Below, piece by piece: positions 42,064 to 46,482 of a DNA stretch of 64,000 nucleotides. Position 1 is the first letter of the stretch. Each line of letters begins with the position of its first letter. This DNA is from Comamonas sp. NLF-1-9 (GTDB taxonomy: Bacteria > Pseudomonadota > Gammaproteobacteria > Burkholderiales > Burkholderiaceae_C): positions 186,001 through 250,000 of the forward strand of contig NZ_CP078069.1 in the NCBI RefSeq assembly GCF_019195435.1, read 5' to 3'. The position numbers were made by a program, and so were the translations under genes. The notes beneath the pieces are model-generated. The model saw only the letters and a list, made by a program, of their open reading frames with translations. It was not told the DNA's origin and made no database searches.

Positions 42064-43983
42064 TCAGGCTTTGGAGGCGATGTCCCGTGCGATCCGTTCG
42101 ACGAAGGCGTCGAGAGACATCACGCCCAGGTCCACATTGCCCCGGGCACGTACCGCAACGCTGCCAGCGGCCTTTTCCTTGTCGCCCGCGACCAGGATAT
42201 AGGGCGGCTTTTGCAGCGCTTGCTCACGTATTTTATACGTAATCTTCTGGTTGCCCAGCGCCGTCACCACCCTAAGATCTTGATTCGGCAACGCTTTTTG
42301 CAGCTTTGCGGCAATTTCGCGACAGTAGTCGGCCTGTGCATCCGTGATGTTGAGCACCGCGACTTGCACCGGCGCGAGCCAGGCGGGCAGGGCGCCCGCG
42401 TGCTGCTCGATCAGGATGCCGATGAAGCGCTCCAGAGAGCCGACGATGGCGCGGTGCAGCATCACCGGGCGATGGCGCGCGCCGTCCTCGCCCACGTATT
42501 CGGCGTCCAGGCGCTCGGGCATGGAGAAGTCCACCTGGATCGTGCCGCACTGCCACTGGCGCCCGATGGCGTCCTTGAGCGTGTACTCGATCTTGGGGCC
42601 GTAGAACGCGCCTTCGCCGGGTGAGAGCTCGTAGTCGCAGCCTGTGGCCTTGAGACTCTCGATGAGCGCCGCCTCGGCCTTGTCCCAGACTTCGTCCGAG
42701 CCTATGCGCGCCTCGGGGCGCGTGGCGATCTTGTAGATGATGTCGTGGAAGCCGAAGTCCGCATACACCTTCTGCAGCACGCGCGTGAAGGCGAGCACCT
42801 CGTCCTGGATCTGGTCTTCGGTGCAGAAGACGTGGCCGTCGTCCTGCGTGAAGGCGCGCACGCGCATGATGCCGTGCAGGCCGCCTGTGGGCTCGTTCCT
42901 GTGGCAGGCGCCAAACTCGCCATAGCGCAGCGGCAGGTCGCGGTAGCTCTTCACGCCCTGCTTGAAGATCAGGATGTGGCCCGGGCAGTTCATCGGCTTG
43001 AGTGCGTATTCGCGCTTTTCCGACTCGGTCGTGAACATGTTTTCACGGTACTTGTCCCAGTGGCCCGTCTTTTCCCACAGGCCCTTGTCCAGGATCTGCG
43101 GCGCCTTGACCTCCTGGTAGCCGCTGTCGCGGTAGACGCGCCGCATGTACTGCTCCACCTGCTGCCAGATCGCCCAGCCGCGCGGGTGCCAGAACACCGT
43201 GCCCGGCGAATGCTCGTCGATGTGAAACAGGTCGAGCTCGCGCCCCAGGCGCCGGTGGTCGCGCTTTTCCGCTTCCTCCAGCATGCTGAGGTAGGTCTGC
43301 AGGTCTTCCTTGCTGGCCCAGGCCGTGCCGTAGATGCGTTGCAGCATCTCGTTGCGGTGGTCGCCGCGCCAGTAGGCGCCGGCCACCTTCATCAGCTTGA
43401 AGTGCTTGAGCTTGCCTGTGCTGGGCACGTGCGGGCCGCGGCACAGGTCCTCGAAGCTGCCCTCACGGTACAGGCTCACCTCCTCGCCCGCCGGGATGCT
43501 GGCGATGATCTCGGCCTTGTAGTGCTCGCCCAGGCCCCTGAAATATTCGACCGCGGCGTCGCGCGGCAGCACGCGGCGCACCACCGGCTCGTCCTTGGCG
43601 GCGAGTTCGGTCATGCGCTTTTCGATTGCAGCCAGGTCTTCCGGCGTGAACGGGCGCTTGTAGCTGAAGTCGTAATAGAAACCGTTTTCGATGACTGGGC
43701 CGATCGTCACCTGGGCGTCGGGGAACAGCTCCTTGACCGCATAGGCCAGCAGGTGGGCCGTGGAGTGGCGTATCACGTCCAGGCCCTCGGCGTCCTTGAT
43801 GGTGAGGATGGCCACTTGGCTGTCGGCGGCGATCGTGTAGGCCATGTCGACCACCTTGCCGTCGACCTTGCCGGCAATCGCGGCCCGCGCCAGAGCCGCG
43901 CCGATCGAGGCGGCGACTTCAGCGATGGTGACGGGCCCGGGAAACTGGCGCTGCGAACCGTCAGGTAGCGTGATCTGAACCAT
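42064..43983 (-). CDS. thrS: Threonyl-tRNA synthetase
   Basis: A 639-residue class II synthetase. It has an N-terminal TGS domain ([18 protein letters not shown]), the editing domain with [20 protein letters not shown], and the catalytic core with the zinc ligands in [18 protein letters not shown] and VMLHRAIVG. The C-terminal anticodon domain ends the protein. The ATG at 43983 follows GGGA at 8 bases and gives the usual N terminus. A Thr-rich leader peptide and attenuator precede it, and infC follows at about 90 bases, giving the widely conserved thrS-infC-rpmI-rplT order. Confidence 0.97.
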
Positions 43984-44022
43984 GGCGTGAGTCCCTTGCA
44001 TAGCGGTGGGTGATCAAGACAA

Positions 44023-44131
44023 CAAAAAGCGCGGAACAAGGTCCGCGCTTCTGGTGGGAAAGAGAAAGGCTTTCGGGCAGGCGCGAACCATCAGCCCAGC
44101 GGGCCGGTTTCCTTTGCGGTGGTAGTTCGCG
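44023..44131 (-). promoter_or_regulatory. thrS transcription attenuator (four-segment)
   Basis: On the minus strand four segments can pair in competing ways. Segment 1 is CGCGAAC (44131-44125, inside the leader peptide). Segment 2 is GGTTCGCGC (44089-44081). Segment 3 is GCGCGGACC (44048-44040), within AAGCGCGGA. Segment 4 is TCCGCGCTT (44035-44027), followed by TTTTTG. Pair 1:2 has 7 bases, the antiterminator 2:3 has 9 with one G-U, and the terminator 3:4 has 9 with a six-base loop. This is the layout of a classic amino acid attenuator. Confidence 0.8.
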
Positions 44132-44138
44132 GTGTCAT
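44091..44138 (-). CDS. thrS leader peptide (Thr-rich)
   Basis: A 15-codon open reading frame encoding MTPRTTTAKETGPLG, with five Thr codons (ACA, ACT, ACC, ACC, ACC), three in a row. It lies 68 bases downstream of the decarboxylase stop and 108 bases before thrS. Its Thr run sits on attenuator segment 1. AAAGG lies 11 bases upstream. An in-frame ATG 48 bases earlier (44186) could extend it to 31 residues, but a TAAAAT hexamer at 44190-44185 may be the -10 box, which would exclude that start. The role as a sensor of charged Thr-tRNA is inferred. Confidence 0.75.
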   Translation of the reverse strand: MTPRTTTAKETGPLG

Positions 44139-44205
44139 AACCGGGTATGCCTTTCTTGCCCTTGCTGTCTCGATGAAGCTGTCCATTTTAACGCCAAGGG
44201 CAAAT

Positions 44206-46482
44206 TCAGGCGACGCAGTCCGCAAAATAATGCATGGTGCCGTCTTCGTCCTTGAGCTCCACCAGGCCATGGATGTCGGTATCGAAGCCGGGGCACAGGC
44301 GCGAGAACTCGCGCGCGAACTTGAGGTAGTCCACGATCTTGCGGTTGAACACCTCGCCCGGAATGAGCAGAGGTATGCCCGGCGGATAAGGCGTGATCAG
44401 GCTGGTGGTGATGCGCCCTTCAAGGTCGTCGATGGCCACGCGCTCAGTCTTGCGCGCGGCGATGTGCGCAAAAGCGTCGCTCGGCTTCATCGCCGGGGTC
44501 AGCGGCGACAGGTACATCTCGGTGGTCAGGCGCGCCACGTTGTAGCGCGCATACAGCTCGTGCACGTGCTGGCACAAGTCCTTCAGGCCCATGTGCTCGT
44601 AGCGCCGCTGCTGTTGGCTGAACTCGGGCAGGATGCGCCACATCGGCTGGTTCTTCTCGTAGTCGTCCTTGAACTGCTGCAAGGCGGTGAGCATGGTGTT
44701 CCAGCGGCCCTTGGTGATGCCGATGGTGAACATGATGAAGAAGCTGTAGAGCCCGGTCTTTTCCACCACCACGCCGTGCTCGGCCAGGTATTTGGTGACG
44801 ATGCTCGCCGGAATGCCCATCTTGTGGAACTTGCCGTCCAGGTCCAGGCCGGGCGTGACGATGGTGGACTTGATCGGGTCGAGCATGTTGAAGCCGTCGG
44901 CCAGGTTGCCAAAGCCGTGCCACTTGCTGCCGTTCTTCTTGCTCTTGCCGTCGCTGCGGATGATCCAGTCGTCGGCCCGGCCTATGCCTTCTTCGGCGAT
45001 CTTCTCCGGCCCCCAGACCTTGAACCACCAGTCGTCGGCGCCGAATTCCTCTTCCACCTTGCGCATCGCGCGGCGGAAGTTCAGCGCTTCGAGGATGGAC
45101 TCTTCCACCAGCGCGGTGCCGCCCGGCGGCTCCATCATGGCCGCGGCCACGTCGCAGCTCGCGATGATGCTGTACTGCGGCGAGGTGGAGGTGTGCATCA
45201 GGTAGGCCTCGTTGAACAGGTGCCAGTCCAGCTTGGTGCTCTGGCTGTCTTGCACCAGTACGTGGCTCGCCTGGCTGATGCCGGCGAGCAGCTTGTGTAT
45301 CGACTGGGTCGAATACACCACCGACTGCTTGGGCCGTGCGCGCTTCTTGCCCATCGCGTGGTAGCTGCCATAGAAGGGGTGAAAAGCCGCATGCGGCAGC
45401 CAGGCCTCGTCAAAGTGCAGGTTGTCCACATAGCCGTCGAGCATCTGCTTGATGGTCTCGGTGTTGTAGAGCACGCCGTCGTAGGTGGACTGGGTGAGCG
45501 TGAGGATGCGCGGGCGCACCTTCTTCGGGTCGACGCCCTTGAGCAAGGGGTTGGCGCGGATCTTGGCCTCGATGGTGGCCGGCTCGAACTCGGACTTGGG
45601 GATGGGCCCGATGATGCCGAAGTGGTTGCGCGTGGGCTTGAGGAACACCGGTATCGCACCCGTCATGATGATGGAGTGCAGGATGGATTTGTGGCAGTTG
45701 CGGTCCACCACCACCACGTCGCCGGGCGCGACCGTATGGTGCCAGACGATCTTGTTGCTCGTCGAGGTGCCATTGGTCACGAAGAAGCAGTGGTCGGCGT
45801 TGAAGATGCGCGCGGCATTGCGTTCGCTCTCGCCGATCGCGCCGTTGTGGTCCAGCAGCTGGCCCAGCTCTTCCACCGCGTTGCACACGTCGGCGCGCAG
45901 CATGTTCTCGCCGTAGAACTGGTGGTACATCTGGCCTATCGGGCTCTTGAGAAAAGCCACGCCGCCCGAATGGCCCGGGCAGTGCCAGGAATACGAGCCG
46001 TCCTCGGCATAGTCGAGCAGCGCCTTGAAGAACGGCGGCTGAATGCCTTCCAGGTAGCCCTTGGCCTCGCGGATGATGTGCTTGGCCACGAATTCCGGCG
46101 TGTCCTCGAACATGTGGATGAAGCCATGCAGCTCGCGCAGGATGTCGTTGGGCAGGTGCCGGCTGGTGCGGGTTTCGCCGTAGATGTAGATCGGCACGTC
46201 GGCGTTCTTGCGCCGCACCTCCTCGATGAAGGCGCGCAGGCTGTGGATGATCGGGTCCTGCCCCGAGCCCAGCGTGATTTCCTCGTCGTCGATCGACAGG
46301 ATGAAGGCGCTGGCGCGGCTTTGCTGCTGGGCAAACTGCGTCAGGTCGCCGTAGCTCGTGACGCCAAGCACCTCGAAGCCTTCCGCTTCGATGGCCTGCG
46401 CCAACGCGCGTATGCCCAGGCCCGAGGTGTTGTCGGAACGGTAGTCCTCGTCGATGATGACAATCGGAAAGCGAAATTTCAT
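44206..46482 (-). CDS. Inducible-type arginine/lysine/ornithine decarboxylase
   Basis: A 758-residue PLP enzyme of the fold-type I basic amino acid decarboxylases. It begins with the receiver-like wing domain (FPIVIIDEDYRSDNTSGLGI), then the PLP core with HCPGHSGGVAFLKSPIGQ, FVTNGTSTSNKIV, DEAWLPHAAFHPFYG and the Schiff-base Lys in STQSIHKLLAG. A large C-terminal domain completes the AdiA/CadA/SpeF-like architecture. It consumes a proton per decarboxylation and so serves acid resistance or polyamine synthesis; arginine is the likely substrate from length, but this is not certain. No antiporter gene is adjacent. The thrS leader begins just after its stop. Confidence 0.88.
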   Translation of the reverse strand: MKFRFPIVIIDEDYRSDNTSGLGIRALAQAIEAEGFEVLGVTSYGDLTQFAQQQSRASAFILSIDDEEITLGSGQDPIIHSLRAFIEEVRRKNADVPIYIYGETRTSRHLPNDILRELHGFIHMFEDTPEFVAKHIIREAKGYLEGIQPPFFKALLDYAEDGSYSWHCPGHSGGVAFLKSPIGQMYHQFYGENMLRADVCNAVEELGQLLDHNGAIGESERNAARIFNADHCFFVTNGTSTSNKIVWHHTVAPGDVVVVDRNCHKSILHSIIMTGAIPVFLKPTRNHFGIIGPIPKSEFEPATIEAKIRANPLLKGVDPKKVRPRILTLTQSTYDGVLYNTETIKQMLDGYVDNLHFDEAWLPHAAFHPFYGSYHAMGKKRARPKQSVVYSTQSIHKLLAGISQASHVLVQDSQSTKLDWHLFNEAYLMHTSTSPQYSIIASCDVAAAMMEPPGGTALVEESILEALNFRRAMRKVEEEFGADDWWFKVWGPEKIAEEGIGRADDWIIRSDGKSKKNGSKWHGFGNLADGFNMLDPIKSTIVTPGLDLDGKFHKMGIPASIVTKYLAEHGVVVEKTGLYSFFIMFTIGITKGRWNTMLTALQQFKDDYEKNQPMWRILPEFSQQQRRYEHMGLKDLCQHVHELYARYNVARLTTEMYLSPLTPAMKPSDAFAHIAARKTERVAIDDLEGRITTSLITPYPPGIPLLIPGEVFNRKIVDYLKFAREFSRLCPGFDTDIHGLVELKDEDGTMHYFADCVA

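What the first reader, a model, noticed from the sequence alone, without database searches (positions are those of the whole stretch)
44023..44138. Thr-rich leader peptide and complete four-segment attenuator upstream of thrS
A 15-codon ORF, MTPRTTTAKETGPLG, with five Thr codons lies between the decarboxylase gene and thrS. Behind it four segments can fold in the classic alternative way: 1:2 (7 bp), antiterminator 2:3 (9 bp, one G-U) and terminator 3:4 (9 bp plus TTTTT). Segment 1 lies under the Thr codons ACT ACC ACC, so a ribosome stalled for lack of Thr-tRNA would free segment 2. E. coli thrS is controlled at translation instead, by ThrS binding an operator that mimics tRNA. Here the whole thrS-infC-rpmI-rplT-pheST-ihfA unit could respond to threonyl-tRNA by transcription attenuation. 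I know of no description of this arrangement.
Basis: partly seen in the sequence, partly recalled or inferred. Interest (0 to 1): 0.87.

Follow-up and report, generated by a model that had tools for sequence, protein, structure and literature searches.

The report
Threonine leader attenuator before thrS
Upstream of the threonyl-tRNA synthetase gene in this bacterium and many relatives lies a conserved tiny threonine-containing reading frame followed by a transcription terminator, which most likely lets the cell make more of the enzyme when charged threonine tRNA runs short; the switch is of a classic kind.

Summary
Minus strand 44138-44091 encodes MTPRTTTAKETGPLG; pairings 1:2, 2:3 and 3:4 exist, and an intrinsic terminator ends about 40 nt before thrS. 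It is conserved: 78 of 108 thrS upstream regions match the leader's 18-base start at 16 or more positions, the other 30 at 12 or fewer; 46 of 399 genomes sampled from the order, in eight families, carry it with 0-1 mismatch. After codon 5, Thr is 239 of 1034 residues in frame, 13 and 36 of 917 out of frame. Simulated ribosome positions fit an attenuator, modestly. Best reading: ribosome-mediated transcription attenuation of thrS by Thr-tRNA shortage. Corrections: the invariant part is the 17-nt head GTTATGACACCGCGAAC (MTPRT), not the Thr run; 20 of 117 leaders have only its two Thr. Stem 1:2 shows no covariation; an inner hairpin does. A Thr leader before thrS was proposed in Streptomyces lividans (PMC8079986), so this is a new member of a known kind. 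No response to threonine was measured. Why the head is frozen is unexplained.

The parts
44185..44190 (-). TAAAAT, likely -10 box of the leader promoter
   Evidence: Read; a TANNNT box with 5 or more of 6 matches to TATAAT lies 38-66 nt before the leader start in 60 of 118 leaders tested, against 13 of 118 after shuffling. The consensus promoter scan found no site here.
44149..44156 (-). AGAAAGGC: Shine-Dalgarno of the leader ORF and 5' arm of the outer stem
   Evidence: Fold; as a group this pairing is stronger than shuffles (mean -12.35 against -11.61 to -10.60 kcal/mol, 113 leaders; p <= 0.05 in 21 of 113 singly).
44125..44141 (-). Invariant head GTTATGACACCGCGAAC (-3 to +14 of the leader)
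   Evidence: Each column 95-100% conserved in 119 leaders (the set was picked by similarity to this stretch). Of the part ATGACACCGCGAAC the own genome has one exact copy; two one-mismatch copies look like chance.
44091..44138 (-). Leader ORF MTPRTTTAKETGPLG and TGA stop
   Evidence: homologues.
44125..44131 (-). Segment 1, CGCGAAC
   Evidence: Pairs with segment 2 in the fold; 98% of cells paired in 35 relatives but no covariation.
44092..44106 (-). Inner hairpin that takes in part of the stop codon
   Evidence: Five of six pairs change on both sides among 35 relatives, 85.7% of cells paired.
44081..44089 (-). Segment 2, GGTTCGCGC (antiterminator 5' arm)
   Evidence: Pairs with segment 3; group mean -13.15 against -11.39 to -10.77 kcal/mol in shuffles, 117 leaders.
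44063..44070 (-). GCCTTTCT, anti-Shine-Dalgarno arm of the outer stem
44040..44048 (-). Segment 3, GCGCGGACC (5' arm of the terminator, 3' arm of the antiterminator)
44024..44037 (-). Segment 4 and T run of the intrinsic terminator
   Evidence: a terminator by my rule in 117 of 119 leaders.
42064..44001 (-). thrS; start probably ATG 43983 (MVQITLPDG), else ATG 44001
   Evidence: tRNA-synt_2b, TGS, tRNA_SAD, HGTP_anticodon.

Best explanation
It is a ribosome-mediated transcription attenuator of thrS. Transcription starts near 44178 (inferred from the -10 box). A ribosome loads on the leader. If Thr-tRNA is short it pauses at Thr5-Thr7, covers segment 1, and segment 2 pairs with segment 3, so the terminator cannot form and thrS is transcribed (inferred). 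If Thr-tRNA is ample it reaches the stop codon, one nucleotide before segment 2, covers segment 2, and 3:4 terminates (inferred). With no ribosome, the outer stem hides the Shine-Dalgarno and 1:2 forms, again leaving the terminator free (predicted fold). Shown here: the ORF, the segments, the conservation, the in-frame Thr enrichment and the fit of the geometry. Not shown: translation of the leader, termination, or any response to threonine.
For: 78 of 108 thrS loci carry the leader head. A terminator is present in 117 of 119 leaders, its T run 18-178 nt (median 40) before thrS and at most 40 nt in 60 of 117, leaving little room for another promoter there. Thr after codon 5: 23.1% in frame, 1.4% and 3.9% out of frame; codon 6 is Thr in 81 of 119 with all four Thr codons used. 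Covariation of one 2:3 pair across clades. Stall minus stop 0.183 against 0.055-0.117 in 15 shuffled sets; free state 0.384 against 0.60-0.65 when the 5' part is shuffled, lower than its controls in 85 of 117 loci. The fixed codons are rare: ACA 2.9% and ACT 3.6% of Thr codons, CGA 0.9% of Arg codons in six neighbouring genes. In loci L167 and L168 both arms of the terminator stem differ from their relatives' and still pair.
Against: Per-locus tests are weak: 2:3 at p <= 0.05 in 21 of 84 and 1:2 in 3 of 84; stall-minus-stop in 23 of 117, the window not among them (about 0.17). After clustering of relatives the simulated effect is positive in 32, 26 or 31 of 45 clusters by footprint, and the free-state effect negative in 27 of 45. 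Stem 1:2 has no covariation, 2:3 within Comamonadaceae-type leaders only one double-changed pair, in two sequences; the outer 2:3 pairs q2 and q3 show none. The negative control pairing also just passes its shuffles (-6.69 against -6.68 to -6.15). 20 of 117 leaders have only two Thr. Five loci (L038, named Limnohabitans, L039, L051, L052, L056) have the hairpin without the leader. No promoter by the consensus scan.
Confidence: 0.73

Rival explanations
1. The leader senses general translation capacity rather than Thr-tRNA: the frozen head with rare codons ACA, CGA and ACT makes the first ribosome slow, and the operon (thrS, infC, rpmI, rplT, pheST) is adjusted to ribosome or initiation-factor supply. 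The Thr run is a lineage-specific extra.
For: The widest invariant is the MTPRT head; 20 of 117 leaders have no other Thr; Arg codon 4 is CGA in 113 of 119 although CGA is 2.8% of Arg codons in 76 thrS genes; the genes downstream are translation genes.
Against: Thr is strongly enriched beyond the head in frame and interchanges among its four codons at codon 6, which points to threonine itself.
Confidence: 0.1
2. The hairpin is an old tRNA-Val terminator or a 5' stabilising hairpin with constant partial read-through; the short ORF does not regulate it.
For: 14 of 28 thrS upstream stretches from the wider order hold a tRNA-Val(GAC) gene, some followed by a similar hairpin and no Thr leader that I could see; five loci have the hairpin alone.
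Against: It does not explain the in-frame Thr enrichment, the conserved start or the pairing excesses.
Confidence: 0.1
3. ThrS represses its own leader by binding the frozen head (as E. coli ThrS binds a tRNA-like operator), acting on translation of the leader or on termination.
For: The head is conserved base by base, wobble positions included, which codon sensing alone does not require. E. coli ThrS autoregulation is established (recalled; ThrS is named as a self-regulating RNA-binding protein in PMC2965389, passage seen).
Against: A GGT(TATGAC)ACC hairpin in the head is broken in the 12 of 119 that have C at -4; no anticodon-arm-like structure was recognised by eye; in the window about 40 nt lie between terminator and thrS, and the E. 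coli region looks different.
Confidence: 0.07

Closest known systems
Streptomyces lividans thrL-thrS leader (PMC8079986, passages seen)
   Same: A short Thr-containing leader ORF upstream of thrS, proposed as attenuator from RNA-seq.
   Different: MKRVRPFLETTPGFVPAR with two Thr, leaderless transcript, one hairpin and no U-rich run; no similarity to MTPRT by eye; another phylum.
E. coli pheST attenuator (pheM leader recalled; pheST named as an example in PMC1262725, passage seen)
   Same: Classic ribosome-mediated attenuation of a synthetase operon in the same gene cluster.
   Different: Senses Phe and lies before pheST; here the leader is before thrS, and by eye no Phe-rich leader was seen before pheS in the window.
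E. coli thrS operator (recalled)
   Same: Controls the same gene.
   Different: Translational repression by ThrS on a tRNA-like operator; no Thr-rich ORF with terminator in the 196 nt before E. coli thrS (by eye).
E. coli thrABC attenuator (thrL; recalled)
   Same: A Thr codon run in a leader peptide before an intrinsic terminator.
   Different: A longer Thr/Ile leader before a biosynthetic operon; the window's only Rfam matches are three tRNAs.
Streptomyces leuS and trpS attenuators (PMC1262725, passages seen)
   Same: Leader-peptide attenuators predicted before synthetase genes.
   Different: Other amino acids and phylum.

Membership tests
Ribosome-mediated transcription attenuators (trp/his/pheST type) | Short leader ORF with codons for the amino acid of the controlled operon | tested here: met
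   Five Thr of 15 codons in the window; 239 of 1034 Thr after codon 5 in frame against 13 and 36 of 917 out of frame. 20 of 117 leaders have only the two Thr of MTPRT.
Ribosome-mediated transcription attenuators (trp/his/pheST type) | Intrinsic terminator between leader and first gene | tested here: met
   present by my rule in 117 of 119 leaders.
Ribosome-mediated transcription attenuators (trp/his/pheST type) | Antiterminator 2:3 that excludes the terminator | tested here: met
   Present in the window (segment 3 pairs with 2 or 4). Group excess over shuffles and one covarying pair across clades; weak within Comamonadaceae-type leaders.
Ribosome-mediated transcription attenuators (trp/his/pheST type) | Protector stem 1:2 | tested here: inconclusive
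   Pairs in 98% of cells but without covariation; group excess over shuffles; free-state effect in 27 of 45 clusters.
Ribosome-mediated transcription attenuators (trp/his/pheST type) | Read-through rises when the amino acid is limiting, through leader translation | not testable with these tools
   Needs a reporter or RNA-seq.
T-box riboswitches | Match to the T-box covariance model | tested here: not met
   The window's only Rfam matches at gathering threshold are three tRNAs.
E. coli type ThrS operator | tRNA-like RNA bound by ThrS over the thrS ribosome binding site | tested here: inconclusive
   About 40 nt between terminator and thrS; no similar structure recognised by eye; binding not testable.

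The most novel reading that the evidence does not exclude
The leader has two inputs: Thr codons read by the ribosome, and a 17-nt head, frozen across eight families of the order in a sample of 399 genomes, that is itself recognised (by ThrS, a translation factor or the initiating ribosome) and sets whether and how fast the first ribosome starts. This would be a hybrid of codon-sensing attenuation and sequence-specific leader recognition for a translation-machinery operon.
Probability: 0.17. Interest if true: 0.75.

Novelty: new member of a known kind. Interest (0 to 1): 0.52.

Why it matters
If it works as proposed, this order has a transcriptional solution to thrS control where E. coli uses translational repression, and at least the first gene of a translation-factor operon is under a tRNA-charging sensor. 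The element has no Rfam match and could be annotated by its head. The fetched loci form a natural series, from full leaders to hairpin-only loci, for asking how attenuators arise and decay. The frozen head with rare codons is a clear, testable puzzle.

Tried and rejected
Per-locus shuffle tests of the pairings were weak in GC-rich sequence, so group tests with a negative control and clustering of relatives were added. A start-codon hairpin GGT(TATGAC)ACC was considered for the frozen head and set aside: 12 of 119 break it. Two near-copies of the head elsewhere in the genome were read and look like chance. Outside the order, 3 of 365 sampled genomes of the class have a one-mismatch copy and none an exact one, fewer than the reversed-pattern control (9 genomes). 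Papers: ten searches; in the listings and the passages I opened (PMC4833913, PMC2965389, PMC10272879, PMC9045368, PMC1262725, PMC8079986) I saw no thrS leader in Burkholderiales. Lopatovskaya, Seliverstov and Lyubetsky 2010 (Mol Biol 44:128), on attenuation of synthetase operons, and Vitreschak et al. 2004 were seen only as citations and may contain it.

Rows dropped: L010 and L072 failed the start search, and three loci had less than 340 nt upstream (L059, L090, L092); the 110 loci are those with ThrS nearest to the window's. L031 and L070 repeat L005 and L023. One search used 59 of 84 leaders (no CGCG anchor in 25). Alignment A1 took 35 of 37 group-A leaders (L018, L185 left out), A2 11 of 17 group-C leaders. 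By my rule L025 and L055 lacked a terminator. The 119-leader set was picked by similarity to the head (at least 14 of 17), so its invariance is partly built in; it leaves out MTPRT leaders read (L114, L116, L123, L141) because those stretches end too soon, and L117, L188, L190 and L191. One search is the count not picked by leader.

Full report
What is there. On the minus strand the decarboxylase gene ends at 44206 and thrS begins at 43983 or 44001. Between them lie a -10-like TAAAAT (44190-44185), a Shine-Dalgarno AAAGG (44154-44150), a 15-codon ORF with its stop (44138-44091) and an intrinsic terminator. Folded whole, the leader also has an inner hairpin that takes in part of the stop codon and an outer stem between the Shine-Dalgarno and GCCTTTCT before the terminator. 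The downstream genes are thrS, infC, rpmI, rplT, pheS, pheT and an IHF/HU-family gene (rpmI by eye).

Is it more than chance? Upstream regions of thrS were oriented for 108 of 110 fetched loci. Seventy-eight match the 18-mer GGTTATGACACCGCGAAC at 16 or more positions, 72 of them exactly; the other 30 at 12 or fewer. In 399 genomes sampled from the order, 31 hold it exactly and 15 with one mismatch (families f1, f3, f8, f10, f32, f35, f39, f47). Of 30 loci taken from that search, the window's own included, 28 have thrS within about 300 nt downstream; the two others are two-mismatch hits. Of 20 more places my rule found thrS in 17. Outside the order it is at chance level. Named carriers include Comamonas, Delftia, Acidovorax, Rhodoferax, Hydrogenophaga, Roseateles, Methylibium, Herbaspirillum, Massilia and Undibacterium loci (titles, scores), which is why I call the order Burkholderiales.

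What is selected. In 119 leaders positions -3 to +14 are 95-100% conserved, wobble bases of codons 2-4 included (selection caveat in Tried and rejected). Codon 6 is Thr in 81 of 119, spread over ACG 31, ACA 23, ACC 22 and ACT 5, so there the amino acid is kept and the wobble is free. Thr makes up 239 of 1034 residues after codon 5 in frame, but 13 and 36 of 917 in the other frames. Two levels of selection are therefore visible: base by base in the head, by residue in the Thr run. Ninety-seven of 117 leaders have three or more Thr, 20 only the two of MTPRT. The frozen codons ACA, CGA and ACT (ACT in 105 of 119, ACG in 14) are rare ones.

Do the stems hold? On 117 leaders (113 for the outer stem) the native group means are stronger than each of 40 shuffled sets for 2:3 (-13.15 against a shuffled mean of -11.11 kcal/mol), 1:2 (-15.21 against -13.66) and the outer stem (-12.35 against -11.12). 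A negative control pairing differs much less (-6.69 against -6.42), though it too just passes its 40 sets. Across clades the second pair outside the CGCG core of 2:3 is T:A in 22, G:C in 14, G:T in 6 and unpaired in 17 of 59; the pairs q2 and q3 on the other side show no excess (permutation ignores relatedness). In 35 Comamonadaceae-type leaders the inner hairpin covaries well (five of six pairs with changes on both sides), 1:2 not at all (five of seven pairs never vary) and 2:3 by one pair in two sequences. So the terminator and, more weakly, the antiterminator are supported; 1:2 is plausible but unproved.

Does the geometry work? With the RNA ended before segment 4, segment 3 is paired upstream at 0.71 when a ribosome waits at codon 5, 0.53 when it sits at the stop and 0.38 with no ribosome (means of 117; window 0.80, 0.62 and 0.39, not significant alone). 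Stall exceeds stop by more than 0.3 in 31 of 117 and the reverse holds in 1. Shuffled controls reach 0.055-0.117 for stall minus stop against 0.183, and 0.60-0.65 for the free state when the 5' part is shuffled. After clustering into 45 groups the first effect is positive in 32, 26 or 31 of 45 by footprint, the second negative in 27 of 45. This is the order of states expected of a classic attenuator, but the effect is modest and the model is thermodynamic only.

Wider picture. In 14 of 28 upstream stretches from 25 families of the order, a tRNA-Val(GAC) gene lies before thrS in the same direction. Some of these carry other short leaders with an Arg-Thr pair (L124 MQRTSTKTITYLG, L126 MTLRTCTKH, L127 MGFRTCMPDSMHRF); L137, without the tRNA in the stretch, has MQLNRTTTTS; others have only a terminator-like hairpin as far as I could see. 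Achromobacter loci have MFFPLARTTTRNFRPMSR or near variants, Bordetella sp. LUAb4 MSPNYARTTTSSPR. Five loci (one named Limnohabitans) have promoter-like TAAAAT and hairpin but no leader. In Cupriavidus metallidurans a mapped start listed for thrS is assigned to RNA gene Rmet_R0015, which I take to be an upstream tRNA, and infC, rpmI and ihfA have listed starts of their own (PMC9045368, table passages seen); control of the whole unit is thus uncertain.

What is known. Attenuation of synthetase operons by leader peptides is known for pheST and predicted for leuS and trpS (PMC1262725, passages). A Thr leader before thrS was proposed in S. lividans (PMC8079986, passages). I saw none described in Burkholderiales (searches and limits in Tried and rejected); the most relevant survey (Lopatovskaya et al. 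2010) could not be read. Verdict: a real, widely conserved, probably functional attenuator; a new member of a known kind, with a frozen 17-nt head as the open question.

Noticed in passing
window 40563-40532 (minus strand): A perfect 9-bp hairpin GGGGGCCAG...CTGGCCCCC followed by GTTTCTTTC lies between rplT and pheS, a possible internal terminator; no Phe-rich leader ORF seen by eye.
   Followed up: no
L038, L039, L051, L052, L056: These thrS loci (L038 named Limnohabitans) lack the leader ORF but have TAAAAT and a terminator-like hairpin ending 14-26 nt before thrS.
   Followed up: partly
L117, L118, L120, L122, L124-L127, L129, L130, L132, L133, L136, L138: tRNA-Val(GAC) upstream of thrS in 14 of 28 stretches from the wider order, in the same direction: a long-lived linkage.
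   Followed up: partly
L011, L012, L018, L022, L044, L067, L078, L152, L156: By eye, a GCTAT/GCTAC...AAATT-type palindromic repeat sits between segment 2 and the terminator in some leaders, perhaps a mobile repeat.
   Followed up: no
L117, L171, L189, L190, L191: A variant head with CTG for CGA gives MTPLT instead of MTPRT, so Arg4 is not essential.
   Followed up: no
Cupriavidus metallidurans (PMC9045368): Separate transcription starts are listed for infC, rpmI and ihfA, so the thrS attenuator may not govern the whole operon.
   Followed up: partly
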